NCBI GenBank assembly: GCA_026874595.1
Contig: CM049321.1
Location: 1,114,479 to 1,178,478 of the forward strand
DNA length: 64,000 nt
DNA from: Sipunculus nudus
Lineage: Eukaryota > Annelida > Sipuncula > Golfingiida > Sipunculidae
Reading direction: 5' to 3'
This document shows, in pieces, positions 591 to 41,944 of this stretch. Position numbers and translations under genes: made by a program. Each line of letters starts with the position of its first letter. Within the stretch, counting starts at the first letter, position 1. The notes beneath the pieces were generated by a model. The model had not been told where the DNA came from, did not search any database, and worked only from the letters and a program-made list of their open reading frames with translations.

Positions 591-1590
591 TCGTCCTTCA
601 GGCCATATGTCCGTCATCAGGGCACAAATCGTAACCGCTGAACCTCGAATTTTCCTACTTGACATCCAGGGGGGTCCATGAAATTCTTGAAAACCTGGAA
701 TTAGGTCTCTGTTACCCATATTCTTCCAGCTTTGGGGCTCCAAAATACCCCCCCAGAATAATGGAAAAATTGATACAAAAGCTCAAGTAACTGAATAACT
801 AATGCATAATGCATTGATCACCATGATTCTGTGCATAGGTATTGATCATCAGTGTGGAGTGTTTCATCAGTTTCTGCAAACTGGAGGATGCTACCTGTAT
901 TTTTATGAATTTTTTTCTCTATTTTTTAGACCTTAAAAGATGCAGTCATCTGTTGATAGGGGACAAATCCTAAGGACTGGACCTAGAATCTTTTCTCTTA
1001 ATATGCAGGGATGTCCATGAAAAGTCTCCATGGAAACCTAAAATTAGGTCTCTGTTACCCATATTCTTCAAGCTATGGGGCTCTGAAGTACCCCCCTCCC
1101 AGAATAATGCAATATTTGATACTAAAGCTCAAGTATCTGAACAACTAATGCATTGATCACCATGATTTCTTTGCATAGATATTGGTCATGGAGTGTTTCA
1201 TCACTTTCTGCAGATTGGTGGCGCCACCTGTATTTTTTTCGATTTTTTTTTTCTCTATTTTTGAGACCTTAAAAGATGCAGACATCTGTTCACAGGGCAC
1301 AAATGGTAACCATTGGACCTAGAACCTTCCATCTTGACATGCTGGATTGTCAATAAAAATATCTTCGTTGAAACCTGAAATTAGGTCTCTGTTACCCATA
1401 TCTTCTGAGCTATGGGGCTCAGTAGACCCCAAGGAATACTTAAAATTTAATAAAAAAGCTCTAGTATCTCAACAAATTGTGCATTGCTTGCCATGATTCT
1501 TTGCATGCATATTCATCATGGAGTGTTTTTTCAGTTTTTGCAGACTGGTGGCGCCACCTGGATTTTTTCCAATTTTTTTTTAGCAAACCT
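590..1590. repeat. Three degenerate tandem units of about 335-345 bp
   Basis: Three successive units share the blocks GGGCACAAAT..TAACC, TTAGGTCTCTGTTACCCATA, GGGGCTC, TGCATTGATCACCATGAT and ATGGAGTGTTTCATCA. Units begin near 605, 950 and 1285. Units two and three end in a GGTGGCGCCACC palindrome (1217-1228 and 1547-1558); unit one has the degraded form GGAGGATGCTACC. Spacing varies by small indels, so the array is old. No coding potential. Confidence 0.75.
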
Positions 1591-5049: not shown

Positions 5050-5986
5050 TTACTTAGAAATGAGATCAGGCTTGTATCCCAGTTTTTCAAAGATATTTCC
5101 ACATCGTTCATTAAATGCATCTGCATCTTCCTGTGAAAACTGTTCCATCCATAAACGGGAAGTTTTAAATGAATTTCTTCGAGCTGTTCCATAAGGACCA
5201 TTATCGTGCGTAGCATTTGCGTTCTTAATAATCCAATCATTCACAGCAGAATGTAGGGGCATGTTGATAAATGAGTACAATGCTTCAGCATACTGAAAAG
5301 GCTTTTCTGCAAGATCCTCGTATCTAAGAGTCATAATCCTTCCAGGATACTTCTTCGATAAAAGTTCCGTGTGCTCAACGTTATCCAACATTTGCATACA
5401 TAATAGTTTCATAAAATCGAACATAGCGCCATTGTTCTCATATGGTATCTTCCTTGCAGCCTTCCGTGACATGTATATGCCCCTAGGATCACGTACGTAA
5501 TGGATCACCTGTACCTCCGGATGTTCCTCCATTAATTTACCCATTAAGAACATTCTGAGACGACCCACTTTCATAGCAGACACAGTAGTTGATTTGCAGG
5601 TATCATTTATTATACTCGCGCAAGCCCGCGTTTCGCTTTTCATGTTTTGCATACATTTACGATGGCAATAGACGCCAGGAGGGAGGCATGAGATCAAGCT
5701 GTCCTTTCCAGATGGAAGTATAGTTATGTTTCTGTAGCAGTCACGTAGATAATCGAGGTCCGGTTCAGGAAATTTACAGTTGCACTCTCGCCTCTTAAAT
5801 GAAACAATAAAGTCCCTTTTCCTGGATATATTTTCGAGACATTTCATCAACGCAGGGCCCCATCTGAACTTTCGGTTGACTCCAAGTCTATTATAGAGAA
5901 TTTCTGGTGGCATCTTGCTTGGCGGATCCGACAATAATCGAAACAATAGATTTCTCACAGAATTTACCTCATGCTCCGGAACATTC
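5050..5986 (-). CDS. Carbohydrate sulfotransferase, terminal exon (open)
   Basis: This open exon encodes the C-terminal three quarters of a Golgi carbohydrate (Gal/GalNAc/GlcNAc-type) 6-O-sulfotransferase, an enzyme family that moves sulfate from PAPS to glycan chains. The acceptor reads TCCTAACAG at 5987-5995, giving one base to complete a codon, then 311 residues to a stop at 5050-5052. The 3'-phosphate-binding motif is clear (VIHYVRDPRG), followed by the family motif LRYEDLAEKP and conserved Cys residues in SLISCLPPGVYCHRKC. No start codon is needed: the 5'-PSB motif (RSGSS) is absent here and must come from an upstream exon. The exon starts in the phase left by the 5'-PSB exon at 14132-14357, so that exon, or an unseen one, supplies the N terminus. 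A terminal exon at 12.3-13.2 kb is a damaged paralogue. Substrate cannot be told. Confidence 0.9.
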
Positions 5987-6389
5987 CTGTTAGGATGAAA
6001 TATAAGTAACGGTATCCAATTGTTTTGAAATAAATATTAAAGTTTAAACACAGAATAATACCAACATCAAGCGCACAATTAAGTATTTTTATGTATCATA
6101 TTCCATTTAGTGGTATTTTTGAGAATCTAAATGAAAATCAGATATATATCCAGAATCCTATAATATATCAGAAGATTTCAGAATGTTTTTATCAGACAGT
6201 TGACGGTATTTGTGCGCTCATGCCCTTCTACACAAGCCATACAAATAAAGGAAACAATATTAAGATACAAATTCCAAAGAGGTAGCTAAAATACGAAATG
6301 TCATGACAAGATATGAATATTCTGGATGTGCATAAGCAACATGAAGCAACGGAGATATATTTCGCTGTATTGAATGGTGATTTTGAGAT
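5987..6389. other. Intron or intergenic DNA, nothing recognised
   Basis: AT-rich. The only ORF (6091-6285) has no recognisable motif and no counterpart in the duplicated block, so I treat it as chance. Confidence 0.5.
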
Positions 6390-7558
6390 ACAATGGAACA
6401 CAGTGCATCAGTACGTCACACAGTTGATGGAGTGGTCCTTTGGCAAAACGTAGGGACAAAAGGTTACCTTTCTAAGGTGAGTATTCAAGCTCGGGTTAAA
6501 TACAAAGAATTCTTTATTGTCCAGTGGGAGTGTAACATGACCTTGCATTTGTGTCGGAAGCTTTTTATTTATATATGATGTTAATGTTCCTTTTCACACG
6601 GCAAATCTGAATGGCTGAACCATAACACAAAACCTCAGACATATTTCAGGGAAACGCAACAAGGGTCTAAGTGCAAAAATGGTGCTCAATTCATCTATAT
6701 ACAATATTTGCAATAACAAATAAACAAAGAGTTAAAACATGAAGAATCCTAAACAATGTCTCTGGATTTGGCTGCAAATGAATAAATACTTAATTGAAGC
6801 CAAAAAATCCAACTGAAGATTCACTGCCGGTCCATAGTTACTTAAAGAGAAAACGAAAATTTCAGCATCCGGCGCGGATAAATAAAAGTCCTCCCTCTTC
6901 ACAAAAAAGGCCATGTTTCTTTATTGTGGAGGAGGACGTCCCACAGATAACGAATCTCCTTATTCCCGGGGTTGATAAGTTAACGTGAAAAGTTCATAAT
7001 AGAGTCCTCGCTGAAGAGCGGTGACGAGTCCTCTTATAGGACTCTTGAAAAGCGGTAACATGCGTCACAGTGGTTTTTTTTTAATGAGGCAGCGAGTCTG
7101 CCTGGCACGGGACTTGCCCTATCGTAGACACACACTTCAGAACAATTCAGACAGCAAGTCTGCCTCATTTCTTCATAGTTATAATTGTTCTGACAGCTAG
7201 ATGTCCAACGATTTTTGATAGCTTTATCTTGTACACTTAACTGTGGTGCCACCTACAATATTTTATTAGTTTTCACCTTTACCAATTCTTAGATTAATTT
7301 GACATCTCTTATGCCTCAAAGATGGAATGCTGTCACCTCAAGAAACATTCCTTGCGACAATATATTCTGGTGGCAAACCAGAAGAACAAAAAGTGACCTA
7401 AAGGTGTTTGCATTACAAATGTGGTCTTGTGCACATTGCAAACAACCCTCTTAAGCTACACGCATCTGTAAACAGTCATATGTCCGTCATAAAGCATTAT
7501 AAGAACATGTCTTAGCAGGAATAACTTACAGGTCATTAATATGTATGCAAAGTAAAAC
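6390..7558. repeat. Duplicated block, left part (paralogue of 19945-22550)
   Basis: Starting at TCAGTACGTCACACAGTTGA, this block aligns with 19958 onward: shared TGGTCCTTTGG, AAAAATCCAACTGAAGATTC and GTGGTGCCACCTA segments appear in the same order. The copy at 20 kb carries about 1.5 kb of extra sequence (about 20.7-22.2 kb). The block resumes on the far side of the tRNA-like array at 10166. No gene is recognised; ORFs at 6393, 6794 and 7034 are not conserved as proteins. Confidence 0.8.
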
Positions 7559-7570
7559 AGCTATTGCATA
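7559..7570. repeat. Left 12-bp target-site duplication of the tRNA-like array
   Basis: AGCTATTGCATA here is repeated exactly at 10166-10177 on the other side of the array. The paralogous locus at 22551-22562 has a single AGCAATTACATA, continuous with the same flanks, so it represents the empty site. Confidence 0.85.
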
Positions 7571-7622
7571 TATAGAAAGATGTTGAATGGCCATGGTGCT
7601 GATACACAGAGGAAGTTGGGGA

Positions 7623-7694
7623 TCCCTGTTAGCTCAGTGGTAGAGCAGACGACCGGCAATCGGAGGGTCATGGGTTCGATTCCCATACGGGGTG
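7623..7694 (+). tRNA. tRNA-like Pol III unit 1 (Ala-GGC-like, degenerate)
   Basis: The 72-nt sequence folds with canonical tRNA geometry: 7-bp acceptor (six pairs incl. one GU; T1-T72 mismatch), D stem GCTC/GAGC, T arm ATGGG-TTCGATT-CCCAT, five-base variable region. The anticodon loop is CCGGCAA, so the anticodon would be GGC, but position 33 is C instead of T and only three of five anticodon-stem pairs form. Box A TAGCTCAGTGG (7630-7640) and box B GGTTCGATTCC (7673-7683) match consensus exactly with normal spacing. A T5 terminator follows at 7702-7706. The flanks GATACACAGAGGAAGTTGG (7601-7619) and the 3' trailer pair with each other, so the transcript would be a tRNA fold on a long stem. 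Best read as tRNA-like, not a working tRNA. Confidence 0.75.
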
Positions 7695-7927
7695 ATCCGA
7701 CTTTTTCTGTGTATTCTTGTTCTATATCTCCATGGGATGGACCAGCATGGCCATTCAACATCTTTCTATATAATATTTGATGCACACAATAAAAGGCCAT
7801 CAGTTTATCACTGCTACATGCAAATTCGCCGTGTCGACACATGTAGTATGTATAATACCAGTCACAGTAGTGTCGTCACTTCGCTGGTTCCAATGAAAGT
7901 GTGCTGATACACAGAGGAAGTTGGGGA

Positions 7928-7999
7928 TCCCTGTTAGCTCAGTGGTAGAGCAGACGACCGGCAATCGGAGGGTCATGGGTTCGATTCCCATACGGGGTG
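7928..7999 (+). tRNA. tRNA-like Pol III unit 2
   Basis: Same 72 bases, boxes and terminator as unit 1. Its unit keeps the older variants AAATTCGCC and GTGTCGTCAC downstream and lacks the 27-base inverted left flank. Confidence 0.75.
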
Positions 8000-8232
8000 A
8001 TCCGACTTTTTCTGTGTATTCTTGTTCTATATCTCCATGGGATGGACCAGCATGGCCATTCAACATCTTTCTATATAATATTTGATGCACACCATAAAAG
8101 GCCATCAGTTTATCACTGCTACATGCAAATTCGCCGTGTCGACACATGTAGTATGTATAATACCAGTCACAGTAGTGTCGTCACTTCGCTGGTTCCAATG
8201 AAAGTGTGCTGATACACAGAGGAAGTTGGGGA

Positions 8233-8304
8233 TCCCTGTTAGCTCAGTGGTAGAGCAGACGACCGGCAATCGGAGGGTCATGGGTTCGATTCCCATACGG
8301 GGTG
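8233..8304 (+). tRNA. tRNA-like Pol III unit 3
   Basis: Module identical to unit 1. The unit carries a private C-to-T change (GGACTAGC at 8348-8355) and the AAATTCGCC/GTGTCGTCAC variants. Confidence 0.75.
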
Positions 8305-8537
8305 ATCCGACTTTTTCTGTGTATTCTTGTTCTATATCTCCATGGGATGGACTAGCATGGCCATTCAACATCTTTCTATATAATATTTGATGCACACCAT
8401 AAAAGGCCATCAGTTTATCACTGCTACATGCAAATTCGCCGTGTCGACACATGTAGTATGTATAATACCAGTCACAGTAGTGTCGTCACTTCGCTGGTTC
8501 CAATGAAAGTGTGCTGATACACAGAGGAAGTTGGGGA

Positions 8538-8609
8538 TCCCTGTTAGCTCAGTGGTAGAGCAGACGACCGGCAATCGGAGGGTCATGGGTTCGATTCCCA
8601 TACGGGGTG
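8538..8609 (+). tRNA. tRNA-like Pol III unit 4
   Basis: Module identical to unit 1. First unit with the AAAGTCGCC and GTGACGTCAC variants; the latter creates a TGACGTCA palindrome (a CRE-type sequence). Confidence 0.75.
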
Positions 8610-8842
8610 ATCCGACTTTTTCTGTGTATTCTTGTTCTATATCTCCATGGGATGGACCAGCATGGCCATTCAACATCTTTCTATATAATATTTGATGCAC
8701 ACCATAAAAGGCCATCAGTTTATCACTGCTACATGCAAAGTCGCCGTGTCGACACATGTAGTATGTATAATACCAGTCACAGTAGTGACGTCACTTCGCT
8801 GGTTCCAATGAAAGTGTGCTGATACACAGAGGAAGTTGGGGA

Positions 8843-8914
8843 TCCCTGTTAGCTCAGTGGTAGAGCAGACGACCGGCAATCGGAGGGTCATGGGTTCGAT
8901 TCCCATACGGGGTG
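8843..8914 (+). tRNA. tRNA-like Pol III unit 5
   Basis: Module identical to unit 1; unit variants as in unit 4. Confidence 0.75.
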
Positions 8915-9147
8915 ATCCGACTTTTTCTGTGTATTCTTGTTCTATATCTCCATGGGATGGACCAGCATGGCCATTCAACATCTTTCTATATAATATTTGA
9001 TGCACACCATAAAAGGCCATCAGTTTATCACTGCTACATGCAAAGTCGCCGTGTCGACACATGTAGTATGTATAATACCAGTCACAGTAGTGACGTCACT
9101 TCGCTGGTTCCAATGAAAGTGTGCTGATACACAGAGGAAGTTGGGGA

Positions 9148-9219
9148 TCCCTGTTAGCTCAGTGGTAGAGCAGACGACCGGCAATCGGAGGGTCATGGGT
9201 TCGATTCCCATACGGGGTG
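9148..9219 (+). tRNA. tRNA-like Pol III unit 6
   Basis: Module identical to unit 1; unit variants as in unit 4 plus a private change AATAACAGTC near 9380. Confidence 0.75.
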
Positions 9220-9452
9220 ATCCGACTTTTTCTGTGTATTCTTGTTCTATATCTCCATGGGATGGACCAGCATGGCCATTCAACATCTTTCTATATAATA
9301 TTTGATGCACACCATAAAAGGCCATCAGTTTATCACTGCTACATGCAAAGTCGCCGTGTCGACACATGTAGTATGTATAATAACAGTCACAGTAGTGACG
9401 TCACTTCGCTGGTTCCAATGAAAGTGTGCTGATACACAGAGGAAGTTGGGGA

Positions 9453-9524
9453 TCCCTGTTAGCTCAGTGGTAGAGCAGACGACCGGCAATCGGAGGGTCA
9501 TGGGTTCGATTCCCATACGGGGTG
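9453..9524 (+). tRNA. tRNA-like Pol III unit 7
   Basis: Module identical to unit 1; the unit adds the CTGCAACATG variant shared only with unit 8. Confidence 0.75.
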
Positions 9525-9757
9525 ATCCGACTTTTTCTGTGTATTCTTGTTCTATATCTCCATGGGATGGACCAGCATGGCCATTCAACATCTTTCTATA
9601 TAATATTTGATGCACACCATAAAAGGCCATCAGTTTATCACTGCAACATGCAAAGTCGCCGTGTCGACACATGTAGTATGTATAATACCAGTCACAGTAG
9701 TGACGTCACTTCGCTGGTTCCAATGAAAGTGTGCTGATACACAGAGGAAGTTGGGGA

Positions 9758-9829
9758 TCCCTGTTAGCTCAGTGGTAGAGCAGACGACCGGCAATCGGAG
9801 GGTCATGGGTTCGATTCCCATACGGGGTG
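9758..9829 (+). tRNA. tRNA-like Pol III unit 8
   Basis: Module identical to unit 1; unit has CTGCAACATG and a private GGTTCTAATG near 10021. Confidence 0.75.
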
Positions 9830-10062
9830 ATCCGACTTTTTCTGTGTATTCTTGTTCTATATCTCCATGGGATGGACCAGCATGGCCATTCAACATCTTT
9901 CTATATAATATTTGATGCACACCATAAAAGGCCATCAGTTTATCACTGCAACATGCAAAGTCGCCGTGTCGACACATGTAGTATGTATAATACCAGTCAC
10001 AGTAGTGACGTCACTTCGCTGGTTCTAATGAAAGTGTGCTGATACACAGAGGAAGTTGGGGA

Positions 10063-10134
10063 TCCCTGTTAGCTCAGTGGTAGAGCAGACGACCGGCAAT
10101 CGGAGGGTCATGGGTTCGATTCCCATACGGGGTG
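10063..10134 (+). tRNA. tRNA-like Pol III unit 9 (terminal, unit truncated)
   Basis: Module identical to unit 1 with its T5 terminator. The unit ends at 10165 after CTTGTTCTAT, where the right target duplication begins. Confidence 0.75.
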
Positions 10135-10165
10135 ATCCGACTTTTTCTGTGTATTCTTGTTCTAT

Positions 10166-10177
10166 AGCTATTGCATA
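10166..10177. repeat. Right 12-bp target-site duplication
   Basis: Exact copy of 7559-7570; continues into AATTATATAGAT, as at the empty site at 22.56 kb. Confidence 0.85.
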
Positions 10178-12272: not shown

Positions 12273-13197
12273 TCATTTCCAAATTGCAAAAGATACTTTC
12301 ACTGAATTTGCGTTATTTATTGCATTTGCCTCCTCCGCCGATATCTTGTTCATCCCGGCTCGAGAAGTCTTGTAAGAATTTTGTCGTGATGTGCCCCAGC
12401 GCCCTGATTCTGTTTTTGCCTCTGTGTTCTCAGCAATCAATTTTTTAACAGATGATGCTAAGGATATATTAATAAATGAATACAATGCTTCAGCATATTT
12501 TAATGGTGTTTCAGCAATATCTTCATACCTTAGAGTCATCATATTGTTGGAATATTTTAGATATATTCTTTCTGCGGCTAGGATGGTATCCATTATGTGT
12601 TTACACAATAGTTCCATTTCCCTCAACCAGTCACCATTGGATGCTTGCGACATTAACTTAGCTTCTTTCATTGACAGGTACATGCCCCTAGGGTCTCTAT
12701 CATAATGCACAACCAGTATTTCTGGATTTTCTTTCAACATGTCCTCAACAATTCTCATTGAAAGCCGCACTGTTTTTGTCACTGACACCTTTGATGACAT
12801 ACACCAGTCATCCATCAATCCGACACAAATACCTGCTTTACTTTGTACCCTTTGAACACATTTGCGATGGCACTAGACACTCATGGGTAAACAAAGTGCC
12901 AATTCAATATCTTCTTTCTGATTTAAGGTTCTTCTGGCGTAACATTCCCGTAAACGTTCAAGGTTCGGTTCTGGAGAATTGCATAGACACCTTTCTATCT
13001 TGAACATTACAAACGGGTCATTCACATCAAGGCCAGTATAATTTTGAATACATTCTCTCACTTTCACGCTCCATGCAACCTTTGACCTAATGGTAAACCG
13101 GCTATATAGGAAACCTAATCGCATCTTGCTAGGCCAGTCAGAGAGCATGCGTGCCGGGAAATGCTGCAAAGTCGTTATTTCGAAGTTGGGAATGTTC
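12273..13197 (-). pseudogene. Carbohydrate sulfotransferase terminal exon, nonsense and frameshift
   Basis: This is the paralogue of the terminal exon at 5050-5986. The acceptor ATCAG precedes 13197 and the reading phase fits the 5'-PSB exon at 14132-14357, 0.9 kb upstream. The first half (RMLSDWPSKM.., Cys-rich middle) runs into TAG at 12873-12875, exactly where the intact paralogue has Tyr in GVYCHRKC; a single base change explains it. The frame then continues, open, through the 3'-phosphate-binding motif (VVHYDRDPRG), LRYEDIAETP and KTSRAG. Near the C terminus the expected IF..LGYK pattern is found in a neighbouring frame, so a one-base indel near 12305 is likely; the shifted frame would stop at 12238. 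Either the gene is dead or this exon is skipped in favour of the one at 5.05 kb. Confidence 0.85.
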
Positions 13198-38468: not shown

Positions 38469-39611
38469 TCAATCACGTGGTGCGATGGCTGCCTCCTGCC
38501 ATGGCACACTGCCAACGTCACTATTGTAATAGGCCTTGAGGTATGCGCGCAGTTCTTTTCCCTGTACAGTCTGTCGTGGCCCACGTCCCTCTTTACGAAT
38601 CTCCTCCAAAACTCCTGCATCTCTCCATGCCCCTGGTATTATGTCCCCGTTTTCGAACTCAACGTCCACTTCGTTTGCAGCGATGGCAGGGTACAGGTCA
38701 CGCATCACATTATGGAGGGTCACACAGGCCTTTGTTATCCACGCAGCGACTTGTGGTTCAACCCACAGGCATGAGTGAAGACAGCTAAACCGGGCAGCCA
38801 GAATGCCGAAAGCATTTTCAACCACGCGTCTGGCCGGTGAACACCGGCAGTTGAAGATGCGTTGGTCGTGGTCAAGTATTCTGTCTTGATACGGCTTCAT
38901 CATAAACGTCTGAAGGGGGAATGCGTCGTTACCGACGAGGAAATAGGGGATGTCTCTGTCGTCGTGGGGCAGGGGGCTGGGGAAGGCGAGGGGAAGGCGA
39001 GGGTGCCCAGTCGAAGTCCATGCTCTAATTGAGACCTATTGAAGACACCACAGTCTGAGTACGATCCAGGGGACCCCACGTTGACCAAGAGGAACTTGTA
39101 CTCGGCGTCAACAAGGCCCAGCACTACGATCGAAAAGAGTCCCTTGTAGTTGTAATAGAGACTGTCCGACTTCCTTGGCTTCCCGATGCGGATGTGTTTC
39201 CCGTCCAAAGCCCCGCAGGCATGGTGGAAGTTCCATCTGGTGCTGAACTTCTCGGCAATTCCTCCCATTCTTCTTCGGTGCTGGGGGTGGTCTACTGTTC
39301 TTCTCTGAACTCTTCAGTTATGGCCTGGAACACCTCCGGCACAAACAGCGATATGGTGTTGTGTGCCACCCGAAAGTTGAACTCCAGAGCTCGGTATGAG
39401 ATTCCTGTTGCCAGGAATCTTAGGGTGATGGCAAGTTTGATACCCGGGCTTAGCGGCGCCACTCTCTCCAGTATATGAAGGAAGATGTCGAAATCCATCC
39501 GTAGGAAGGATTCAAAGCCCCCACAGTCTTCCATCCGCAGCTCGTCCATAAGGGTGTCGTACTGGCCGAGTAGCACTCTTCGCTGCAACAATGGCCGCAC
39601 CCAACAAGTCC
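38469..39611 (-). pseudogene. Harbinger DDE transposase, broken
   Basis: Read on the minus strand from about 39611: an N-terminal helical part (WVRPLLQRRVLLGQYDTLM.., a RFLATG..YRALEFNFRVAHNTIS DNA-binding region), then the catalytic core with ACGALDGKH (first D, 39203-39205), GSYSDCGVFN (second D, 39053-39055) and RRVVENAFGI (E, 38817-38819). All three catalytic residues survive. Lesions: a TAG between EEFREEQ and TTPSTEEEW near 39292, a one-base loss near 39270, and a frameshift near 38985 between TLAF and PLPHDDRDI. The first residues and promoter are lost at the LINE junction. Confidence 0.9.
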
Positions 39612-39612
39612 G

Positions 39613-41944
39613 TTGACAGAGAAGCAATGGATTTCACAGGCTTAACAGAGAGTTTTGGCCTTAAGCAGCATGTACAACAGAGTACCCACCGCAACGGTCA
39701 CACTCTTGATCTAGTGTTAACTAGGGCAGGTGAAGGCCTCCTTAAGGATGTGCAGGTAAAGGACATGGGTTTCCCTGATCATTATCCGGTATTTTTTAAG
39801 TCAGATGTGTCAAGTGAGGTCAGATTGGCTAAACAAGAACGCAAACAGACTGAGATACTCTGGAGAAAGACTGGGTTAACTGTCCATCGTGAGTTATACC
39901 TGTCTAAAAGGGCAAATGTGAACACTATTATACAACAGTCAAAAATTCATTTCAACCAGAATAAGATAATTGAATGTCAGAATGACTCTAGGAAGCTTTT
40001 TAAAATTGTGAACAGTTTGCTAGGTAAGGAGAAGAAAGTCAAATTACCAGAAAAACCAAACCTGAGCTTGTAGCAGAGTTCAGCACCTGTTTATACAGAA
40101 AATAAAAGATATTAATGCATCCATACCAGCATCTGAGTCTTCTATGATCCTGACGTGGGACAATCCTGTGTTACCTTACACTTTACTGCAATACTCCATG
40201 TCATCGCTGCTCCCTGCGACGGATGAGGAGGTATTACGCATGATATCATCATCTGCAAGTAAGCAGTGTGAGCTTGACCCTGTTCCTACACGATTGCTAA
40301 AGGTTTGTGCTGCTGTGCTTGTACCAGTCATCAAACAGATCATAAACACATCACTGTCTACTGGTGAATTTCCTTCTGAATACAAGACTGCTCTAGTTAC
40401 TCCGCTTCTAAAAAGGCTTCATTAGATCCTAACATCCAGAAAAATTTCAGACCAGTATCTAATTTAGCATACGCGTCCAAGCTCTTAGAGAAGGTTGTTT
40501 CAGCCAGGCATAACAAACATCTCGAAGACAATAACCTTAGAAAACCCTACCAGTCAGCCTACATTAGGGGCCATAGTACAGAGACTGCTACACTTAGCGT
40601 TCATAACGACATCCAGTGTGCGTTAGGTGAGCAGAAGTGTGTGCTGATAGTTATGCTTGACTTATCAGCAGCTTTTGACACTGTCAGTCACCAGTGCCTG
40701 TTGCAGACTCTGGAGACACTTGGTGTTTCTAGTAGTGCCTTGAGGTGGTTCCACTTAACCTCACTAATCGAAATCAGGTCATAACCATTGATCGCTGTAG
40801 ATCTACGTCTCAGCCGCGTGCTTGTGGTGTACTACAGGGGTCAGTTCTCGGGCCCATCGTATTCACTCTTTACACATCACCATTAGGAACATTACTCAGC
40901 TATCGTGGCCATTATCATATGTACGTTGATGATTCAATGCTTTATCTCACTTTTCGACCTTCAGAAATCTGTGCAAATATCTCATATATGGAATACACAA
41001 CCGAGCTCGATCGGAAGTGGATGGCAAACAACCAACTTAAAAATGAATGATGATAAAACAGAAGTGATTCTGATAAAACCTCGCAACACTGAAATTGTGT
41101 GCCCAAATCTGTCCGTCGGTCGGCATGTAGTCCAGCCATCTCAGTATGTTAGAAGCCTTGTTGTGTATTTTGATTCATACTCCAGTATGGGGCATCATGT
41201 AAATACAGTTTGCAAGAGTGATTACCTGCACCTCTACAACATTAACAAAATCAAAACTTACTTAGATAAGCCATCACTAGAGCGTTTAATCCATGCATTT
41301 GTGACCAGTAAGCTTGATTATAGTAATGCTCTACTCTTAGGATATCCAGTTTCTCTCATACAGAGGCTCCAGAGAGTTCAAAACTGTGCCAGCTCGAATC
41401 CTGTGTGGCAGTAAAGGATACGAGCATATGACACCTGTCTTGCCAGCCCTACATTGGCTCCCTCTGTGTCAATGGATAAAGTTTAAAGTTGCTATGTTGG
41501 TGTTCAAGGCAAAACATGGTATTGCTCCAAAATACGTTCAGGATTTAATCAAGCCTTACATACCTGCGAGACGTCTGAGATCATTAAACCAAGAATTACT
41601 GTGTGTTCCATATACAAGGTCCACCTTGGCTGCTAATAGAGCTTTTTGTGTTGCAGGACCCACTTTGTTGAACTCTCTCCCACGGGACCTACGTCAAACT
41701 TTTAATCTTGACACATTTAAAAAGAAGCTTAAAATTTGTTTTTTTTCTTGGCAATATCTTAATAGCTAATTATACTTTCACTAAAATCATTCAGCACATT
41801 TACTACGATAGTTCGCTCTTGTGTTTTAACAGCTGCTTTTAATGATATGTGTATACAAAGTACTGTAATGCAATTTTTAATCCTGTCAGTTTGTGTGTTG
41901 TAAAGCGTTTTAGAGCACTTCGGTGGATTTTACGCTGTATAAAA

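What the first reader, a model, noticed from the sequence alone, without database searches (positions are those of the whole stretch)
7571..10165. Nine-unit, 305-bp array of complete Pol III tRNA-like genes
Each unit has perfect box A and box B, tRNA geometry, and a T5 terminator eight bases after the tRNA 3' end. The leader and trailer can pair over about 19 bp, so each predicted transcript is a tRNA-like fold on a long stem. The T33-to-C change, weak anticodon stem and 1-72 mismatch argue against a working tRNA. The exact period and presence of all Pol III signals in nine copies suggest either a selfish satellite built from a tRNA-derived element or a non-coding RNA cluster. I know of no named element with this layout.
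Basis: partly seen in the sequence, partly recalled or inferred. Interest (0 to 1): 0.85.

Follow-up and report, generated by a model that had tools for sequence, protein, structure and literature searches.

The report
tRNA-carrying Penelope-type jumping element
The nine repeats are one copy of a dispersed, non-coding jumping element that carries a tRNA-like gene and inserts with the marks of Penelope-type retrotransposons, apparently copied in laps from one small RNA, but without the self-cutting ribozyme found in its nearest known relatives.

Summary
The array is real: 305-bp period, nine tRNA-like copies, internal Pol III boxes, T5, 20-bp leader/trailer stem. It is one insertion (7571-10165) of a dispersed family (573 and 632 hits to two patterns in this 1.43-Gb genome), bounded by a 12-bp target-site duplication, AGCTATTGCATA.

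Of 74 loci mapped, 44 have TSDs of 9 bp or more (control 23 of 5402). Half are head-to-head inverted arms. Outer ends fall at two unit positions, A (~134) and B (~177); in 27 of 31 classifiable two-armed copies one arm ends at A, the other at B. That is the published Penelope-like element (PLE) "tail" signature, and a PLE in this genome (L093) has the same layout. The unit has a PLE-like tail motif and a pairing strand, with the tRNA hairpin between them. No hammerhead core was found in it.

Units within a locus mostly share one haplotype, so each array was probably copied from one monomer, perhaps a circular RNA. T5 lies upstream of the reverse-transcription start sites, so RNA stopped there cannot be the template.

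Verdict: new variant of a known kind, a PLE-mobilised, retrozyme-like element with a tRNA where a ribozyme is expected. No RNA data.

The parts
7559..7570 (.). left target-site duplication AGCTATTGCATA (12 bp)
   Evidence: exact repeat of 10166-10177
7571..7598 (-). inverted (minus) arm of the element, unit positions 177-148; outer end = site B
   Evidence: arm 7569-7598 97% complementary to 7743-7772; mapped
7596..10165 (+). direct (plus) arm: eight full 305-bp units and a ninth cut at site A (about unit 130-134)
7623..7694 (+). tRNA-Ala(GGC)-like gene of unit 1; the others start at 7928, 8233, 8538, 8843, 9148, 9453, 9758 and 10063 (each 72 nt)
   Evidence: ARAGORN; Rfam RF00005
7601..7620 (+). 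5' strand of the 20-bp stem that extends the acceptor stem (unit 6-25); repeats every 305 bp
   Evidence: fold
7696..7715 (+). 3' strand of the 20-bp stem (unit 101-120), containing the T5 run at 7702-7706
   Evidence: fold; sequence
7722..7734 (+). reverse-transcription start site A (about unit 127-139, TTCTATATCT)
   Evidence: 55 of 113 arms end at unit 122-145, median 134
7740..7751 (+). PLE-like tail motif GACCAGCATGGC (unit 145-156)
   Evidence: compared with GACTAGCACGGC (L093, L096) and GACTAACACGGC (L095, L101)
7764..7779 (+). reverse-transcription start site B (about unit 169-184, TTTCTATATA)
   Evidence: 50 of 113 arms end at unit 164-192, median 177
7883..7889 (+). GCTGGTT (unit 288-294), a strand that can pair with GACCAGC; in RNA order the tRNA hairpin of the next unit lies between the two strands
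   Evidence: predicted pair probabilities 0.9 for five of seven pairs in the circular fold
10166..10177 (.). right target-site duplication AGCTATTGCATA

Best explanation
It is a non-autonomous retroelement moved by a Penelope-like element (PLE). Its RNA resembles the PLE initiation region (start sites A and B, a tail motif and a pairing strand) and carries a tRNA-like domain on a long stem just upstream of site A. SHOWN in sequence: dispersed copies, many with 9-15-bp target duplications; head-to-head arms; two fixed outer-end sites with one arm at each; mostly one unit type per locus; PLE-type reverse transcriptases in the genome, one of them (L093) with the same insert architecture. INFERRED: the PLE protein cuts both target strands, each target 3' end primes on the RNA (one at A, one at B), and the enzyme copies a small circular 305-nt RNA several laps before the two cDNAs are joined head to head. 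INFERRED, less sure: the tRNA supplies an internal Pol III promoter, with read-through of T5 giving the template, and/or a fold that stands in for the hammerhead in making or protecting the circular RNA.
For: Dispersal: at least 211 matches; 573 hits to a 30-mer at up to 3 mismatches and 632 to a 22-mer at up to 1 mismatch, reversed-pattern control 0 in both. TSDs: 44 of 74 loci have a direct repeat of 9 bp or more at the ends, against 23 of 5402 cross-locus pairs; 33 of 74 of 12 bp or more, against 0 of 5402. Ends: 105 of 113 arms end at A or B; 27 of 31 two-armed loci with both ends classifiable are A/B, permutation p 7e-5. PLE precedent: reverse transcription starting at two adjacent internal sites that match the genomic tail (PMC11167929, parts 1 and 2 of 4 read), and inverted pLTRs with a 31-bp tail on one of them and TSDs of 8-10 bp (PMC3846280, passages). 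Same genome: L093 has a 908-aa frame with a reverse transcriptase match, head-to-head arms, a TSD of up to 13 bp, one arm ending about 40 nt beyond the other and a hammerhead-type core in its pLTR. Tail motif and pairing strand: three sequence versions that keep the pairing. Template: 23 of 25 multi-unit loci have a single haplotype at five diagnostic sites; mean difference 1.67 within loci, 6.80 between.
Against: 30 of 74 loci show no TSD of 9 bp or more; some are diverged or lie in simple repeats, others are unexplained. Four of 31 two-armed loci break the A/B rule and six more two-armed loci could not be classified. No PLE close to the unit at DNA level was found: the hits of the unit to the PLE loci are at chance level. 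The motif similarity to L093 is not significant as a free local alignment (149 of 1000 shuffles score as high); only its position makes it notable. The motif was found in place in 4 of the 12 PLE-search loci (L093, L095, L096, L101, two families); L094, L091, L092, L097-L100 and L102 gave none in place, several being truncated or short stretches. The pairing is weakly predicted in L095 and L101 (0.06 and 0.24), and 45 of 208 7-mers of the unit have some upstream complement. Pfam GIY-YIG is not hit in L093 or L094 and is below cut-off in L091 and L092. In three loci (window, L030, L042) of those with more than three full units, variants are shared by a subset of units, which a single template does not predict. 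Within-locus homogeneity could also come from copying an already homogeneous array. No RNA evidence.
Confidence: 0.84

Rival explanations
1. A tRNA-derived SINE, mobilised by a LINE and amplified in tandem after insertion.
For: tRNA head with box A and B; dispersed with TSDs.
Against: No A-tail at the ends printed; in two-armed copies both outer ends are 3' ends of the unit, at two fixed sites; T5 inside the unit upstream of both end sites; copies shorter than one unit are cut at A or B too.
Confidence: 0.06
2. Dispersed short satellite arrays carried by Helentron-type elements, as reported for the Pacific oyster.
For: Dispersed arrays in Helentron-type elements are published for an oyster (PMC7492417, search listing and start of abstract only).
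Against: TSDs of 9-15 bp in 44 of 74 loci; the flanks printed for the loci differ from one another; insertions of only 48-116 bp (L085, L065, L068, L061) also end at A or B with TSDs of 9-15 bp.
Confidence: 0.03
3. PLE-mobilised as above, but the arrays come from linear multi-unit transcripts of existing arrays, not from a circle.
For: The authors of PMC11167929 propose multi-copy mRNA for their PLE. Unit homogeneity would be inherited from a homogeneous source. Shared variants are mixed within a locus in 26 of 79 cells, only 10 of them CpG transitions. 5' ends cluster at unit 247-256 (15 of 113), as if an RNA 5' end lay there.
Against: Variants shared by two or more loci are fixed in all units of a locus in 53 of 79 cells; 17 variants private to one locus are fixed in all its units. 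Arrays of up to 15 full units hold no mixed haplotypes at the diagnostic sites apart from single units in two loci.
Confidence: 0.33
4. A functional tRNA-Ala gene cluster of the host.
For: ARAGORN and Rfam score the copies as tRNAs.
Against: C33, mismatched 1-72, two mismatches in the anticodon stem, and C3-G70 instead of the G3-U70 alanine identity pair (recalled); leader and trailer locked in a 20-bp helix; found as dispersed, often TSD-flanked insertions cut at A or B.
Confidence: 0.02

Closest known systems
Metazoan non-LTR retrozymes (Cervera and de la Pena 2020, PMC7229834; abstract and sections 13, 14 and 17 read)
   Same: Tandem units of a few hundred bp (150-450), GC under 50% (here 45.9%), TSDs, where present, longer than 4 bp, dispersed copies; PLEs named there as a strong candidate for the machinery.
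   Different: They are defined by a type I hammerhead ribozyme; none was found here. [quoted passage not shown]
Endonuclease-positive Penelope-like elements (PMC11167929, parts 1 and 2 of 4 read; PMC3846280, passages)
   Same: Head-to-head inverted copies, tandem or partial-tandem copies, short TSDs, two internal start sites giving an optional tail; a similar tail motif and pairing strand in two PLE families of this genome.
   Different: No ORF and no hammerhead core in the unit; a tRNA domain of about 115 nt in the initiation region; A-B distance about 43 nt here against a published tail of 30-40 bp.
Helenus, TRIM elements with a tRNA-derived sequence in the LTR (PMC10886601, abstract)
   Same: Non-autonomous retroelement that acquired a tRNA gene, also reported from animals.
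   Different: LTR type with PBS, PPT and 4-5-bp TSDs.
tRNA-derived SINEs (recalled)
   Same: Internal Pol III boxes from a tRNA.
   Different: Different 3' end, tandem and head-to-head structure, internal T5 (see rival).

Membership tests
PLE-mobilised non-autonomous element | two fixed start sites, one arm ending at each (tail signature) | tested here: met
   105 of 113 arms; 27 of 31 classifiable two-armed loci A/B
PLE-mobilised non-autonomous element | head-to-head inverted arms and TSDs | tested here: met
   37 of 74 loci two-armed; 44 of 74 with TSD of 9 bp or more
PLE-mobilised non-autonomous element | a PLE-type reverse transcriptase in the genome | tested here: met
   L093 and L094: RVT_1 4.1e-9 and 1.2e-8, with head-to-head or inverted-repeat layout and hammerhead-type cores
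PLE-mobilised non-autonomous element | a GIY-YIG endonuclease on that PLE | tested here: inconclusive
   Pfam 0.0088 in L091 and 0.02 in L092, below cut-off; none in L093 and L094, where the motif is seen by eye only; no PDB match for L093
PLE-mobilised non-autonomous element | sequence shared with its autonomous partner | tested here: inconclusive
   short tail motif and pairing strand only
Metazoan non-LTR retrozyme | type I hammerhead ribozyme | tested here: not met
   no CTGANGA..GAAA core on either strand of the circular unit; with one mismatch in CTGANGA one minus-strand hit. The same expression finds a core in 5 of 12 PLE-search loci (L093, L094, L095, L096, L101) but also 9 times in the 64-kb window, so it is loose. 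Rfam did not report these PLE cores, so its silence on the unit is not counted
Metazoan non-LTR retrozyme | short tandem units, TSD over 4 bp | tested here: met
Metazoan non-LTR retrozyme | expressed as circular RNA | not testable with these tools
   no RNA data; indirect support
tRNA-derived SINE | tRNA promoter head | tested here: met
tRNA-derived SINE | A-rich or LINE-type 3' tail, no internal terminator | tested here: not met
   ends; T5 at 7702-7706. LINE ends of this genome were not compared
Helenus TRIM | 4-5-bp TSD and LTR-PBS-PPT structure | tested here: not met
   TSDs mostly 9-15 bp; tandem or head-to-head layout in the loci mapped
Helentron/HINE | constant ends around the array, no TSD (recalled) | tested here: not met
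Functional tRNA gene | U33 and intact stems | tested here: not met

The most novel reading that the evidence does not exclude
A ribozyme-free retrozyme: a circular-RNA retroelement in which a tRNA domain has replaced the hammerhead, so that the circle is made or protected by host tRNA machinery (Pol III read-through, tRNA folding and modification, tRNA ligase) and is then copied in laps by a PLE primed on both target strands. Weak hint: 13 of 113 5' ends fall at unit 84-92, at A58 of the T loop (recalled site of m1A58, a reverse-transcriptase block), as if the domain were modified like a tRNA.
Probability: 0.3. Interest if true: 0.85.

Novelty: new variant of a known kind. Interest (0 to 1): 0.68.

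Why it matters
[quoted passage not shown] Here the insertion ends themselves point to the machinery, through the two-start-site signature measured for a PLE protein in vitro in 2024 (PMC11167929). The element also gives a compact natural template on which to test two-strand priming, lap copying of a small RNA, and whether a tRNA domain can stand in for a hammerhead. It is a warning for annotation too: many tRNA-Ala calls in this genome are likely to be retroelement copies.

Tried and rejected
Hammerhead in the unit: Rfam gives nine tRNAs at the gathering threshold and, at E up to 10 on 7500-8600, four tRNA hits plus three Deinococcus Y RNA hits and one snR82 hit far below cut-off. The core expression gives none. 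A genome search with RF00163 found nothing, but its controls were silent too, so it is uninformative.

Autonomous partner: PF01541 first led to bacterial UvrC contigs, then to PLE-type frames. No PLE nearly identical to the unit was found; only 12 stretches from that search were read. L093 has no match among PDB sequences.

Relatives with the spacer but without the tRNA: a 121-bp spacer query returned 42 matches, each 96% or more identical; only the best 40 of 829 candidates were scored, so such relatives are not excluded.

The fragments in C3:66.39-66.44 Mb first looked like an autonomous partner; they lie antisense in a tRNA-Gly/Arg-like array.

The excess of 5' ends at 84-92 is only tentative: part of the loci were found by a pattern starting at unit 87, which favours ends just below it. 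Constraint on the tRNA: old and young copies differ in their majority letters at 5 sites, none in unit 1-135; too few to be significant.

Literature: nine searches listed no tRNA-bearing PLE element or retrozyme by title or start of abstract; only open-licence PMC papers are covered, and Repbase and Dfam could not be searched.

Full report
WHAT IS THERE. The window holds eight full 305-bp units and a partial ninth at 7596-10165, each with a tRNA-Ala(GGC)-like gene. Number the unit from GTGCTGATAC (window 7901). The tRNA is 28-99, T5 is 107-111, and positions 6-25 pair with 101-120, so the tRNA fold sits on a 20-bp stem. What it missed is at the edges: 7571-7598 is an inverted piece of the unit (177-148), and the whole is flanked by AGCTATTGCATA at 7559-7570 and 10166-10177.

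A DISPERSED FAMILY. The genome holding the window (1.43 Gb, 153 contigs) contains at least 211 blast matches. It has 573 hits to a 30-base pattern at up to 3 mismatches and 632 to a 22-base pattern at up to 1 mismatch, with 0 for the reversed controls. I mapped 78 loci: the window copy, 37 from the listed blast matches, 20 picked from the first 100 places listed and 20 picked from the first 100 listed. Four were dropped before counting: L084 (another array), L020 (runs into N), L039 and L041 (duplicates of L038 and L029). That leaves 74. The sample is not random, but it was not chosen by its ends.

INSERTION MARKS. Of 74 loci, 44 have a direct repeat of 9 bp or more at the two ends, against 23 of 5402 pairings of the left end of one locus with the right end of another; at 12 bp or more, 33 of 74 against 0 of 5402. 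30 of 74 have none of 9 bp or more. In the first 58 loci, copies range from 42 bp to 5.1 kb. 36 of 74 are one-armed, 37 head-to-head (minus arm left, plus arm right) and one complex. The outer, 3' end of an arm lies at unit 122-145 (site A, 55 arms, median 134) or 164-192 (site B, 50 arms, median 177) in 105 of 113 arms. Of 37 two-armed copies, 31 have both ends classifiable: 27 A/B, 2 A/A and 2 B/B (permutation p 7e-5). One A/A copy, L030, has mirrored flanks and may be an inverted duplication or an assembly effect.

WHAT THIS MEANS. Purified PLE protein from Anolis cuts and extends both target strands and starts reverse transcription at two adjacent internal sites of its RNA; the segment between them is the "tail" seen at genomic ends (PMC11167929, parts 1 and 2 of 4 read). 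A Penelope copy in a rotifer is bounded by inverted pLTRs, with a 9-bp TSD and a 31-bp tail that is optional on one of them; others have TSDs of 8 and 10 bp (PMC3846280, passages). The A/B rule here looks like that signature. PLE-type reverse transcriptases exist in this genome. L093 has a 908-aa frame with a reverse transcriptase match and, by eye, a GIY-YIG-like end that Pfam does not report. It is a head-to-head pair with a TSD of up to 13 bp; one arm matches the other only as far as about 40 nt short of its end. L094 has inverted repeats too, but its ends are AT repeats and cannot be read. I did not determine the species.

SHARED INITIATION REGION. In L093 and L096 the tail carries GACTAGCACGGC, in L095 and L101 GACTAACACGGC, and in the unit GACCAGCATGGC; it starts some 10-16 nt after site A and about 30 nt before site B in both L093 and the unit. 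Upstream lies GCTAGTC, GTTAGTC or GCTGGTT respectively, able to pair with the motif. In the unit the stem has predicted pair probabilities of 0.9 for five of seven pairs, in L096 0.99, in L093 0.54, but in L101 0.24 and in L095 0.06. In RNA order the tRNA hairpin of the unit lies between the two strands, where L093 has about 30 nt up to site A. Hammerhead cores (CTGANGA, stem, GAAA) lie shortly upstream in L093, L095, L096 and L101, and one is in the repeats of L094. The unit has none on either strand. Against this: the other 7 PLE-search loci (L091, L092, L097-L100, L102) show neither core nor motif in place, several being truncated or short; the motif similarity alone is weak (149 of 1000 shuffles reach the free local score); and no PLE read here is close to the unit at DNA level.

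ONE TEMPLATE PER INSERTION. At five sites that vary between loci, all full units of a locus agree in 23 of 25 multi-unit loci; the other two have one deviating unit each. Mean differences are 1.67 within and 6.80 between loci (this count includes L020 and both L038 and its duplicate L039). Without the duplicate, variants shared by two or more loci are fixed within a locus in 53 cells and mixed in 26, of which 10 are CpG transitions; private variants are fixed in 17 cases and unit-specific in 52. So a single monomer seems usually to give rise to the whole array, on both arms. Lap copying of a circular RNA is the simplest account. A homogeneous linear source, or jumping between the repeated ends of a read-through transcript, remains possible.

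ROLE OF THE tRNA. Box A and B could give Pol III transcription from any insertion site, but T5 comes before A and B, and no other run of four or more T lies in the unit. A copied RNA must therefore read through T5 or come from another polymerase. The tRNA is not a plausible translation tRNA. Old and young copies differ at 5 majority sites, none in unit 1-135, a hint of constraint only. 5' ends cluster at 247-256 (15 of 113) and 84-92 (13 of 113). The first is at the base of a predicted hairpin, or may mark an RNA 5' end. The second is at the T loop and would fit a block at m1A58 (recalled), but part of that sample is biased by the search pattern.

VERDICT. A PLE-mobilised, retrozyme-like, tRNA-carrying element. 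It works like a metazoan retrozyme and is not filed as one, because the defining hammerhead was tested and not found. Nine searches of open-licence papers listed no element with this make-up; repeat libraries were not available.

Noticed in passing
L084, L086-L089 (G000:C3:66395000-66444999): A tRNA-Gly/Arg-like array (24 ARAGORN calls; repeats about 470-550 bp apart) holding 21 antisense fragments, 74-86% identical, matching about unit 86-162 of the element: perhaps an old truncated insertion amplified with the array. 16 stretches of about 62-72 bases are masked.
   Followed up: partly
window 618-1581: A 336-bp tandem repeat, about 78% matching. Related repeats occur beside five of the fetched element loci (L026, L064, L067, L070, L077) and flank the PLE copy L091.
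   Followed up: partly
L090 (G000:C61:974200-977400): UvrC domains in a bacterial-looking contig of the assembly; several other small contigs hold GIY-YIG matches in frames of similar length, so bacterial contigs, perhaps of a symbiont or contaminant, seem to be included.
   Followed up: partly
window 5053-6036 and 12276-12872, minus strand: Sulfotransferase-like coding stretches on both sides of the element.
   Followed up: no
window 38472-41766: A DDE_Tnp_4 transposase fragment next to a reverse transcriptase (RVT_1) fragment.
   Followed up: no
unit 247-256 (window 8147-8156): A clustering of 5' ends of element arms (15 of 113), unexplained: hairpin stop, RNA 5' end or an unknown cleavage site.
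   Followed up: partly
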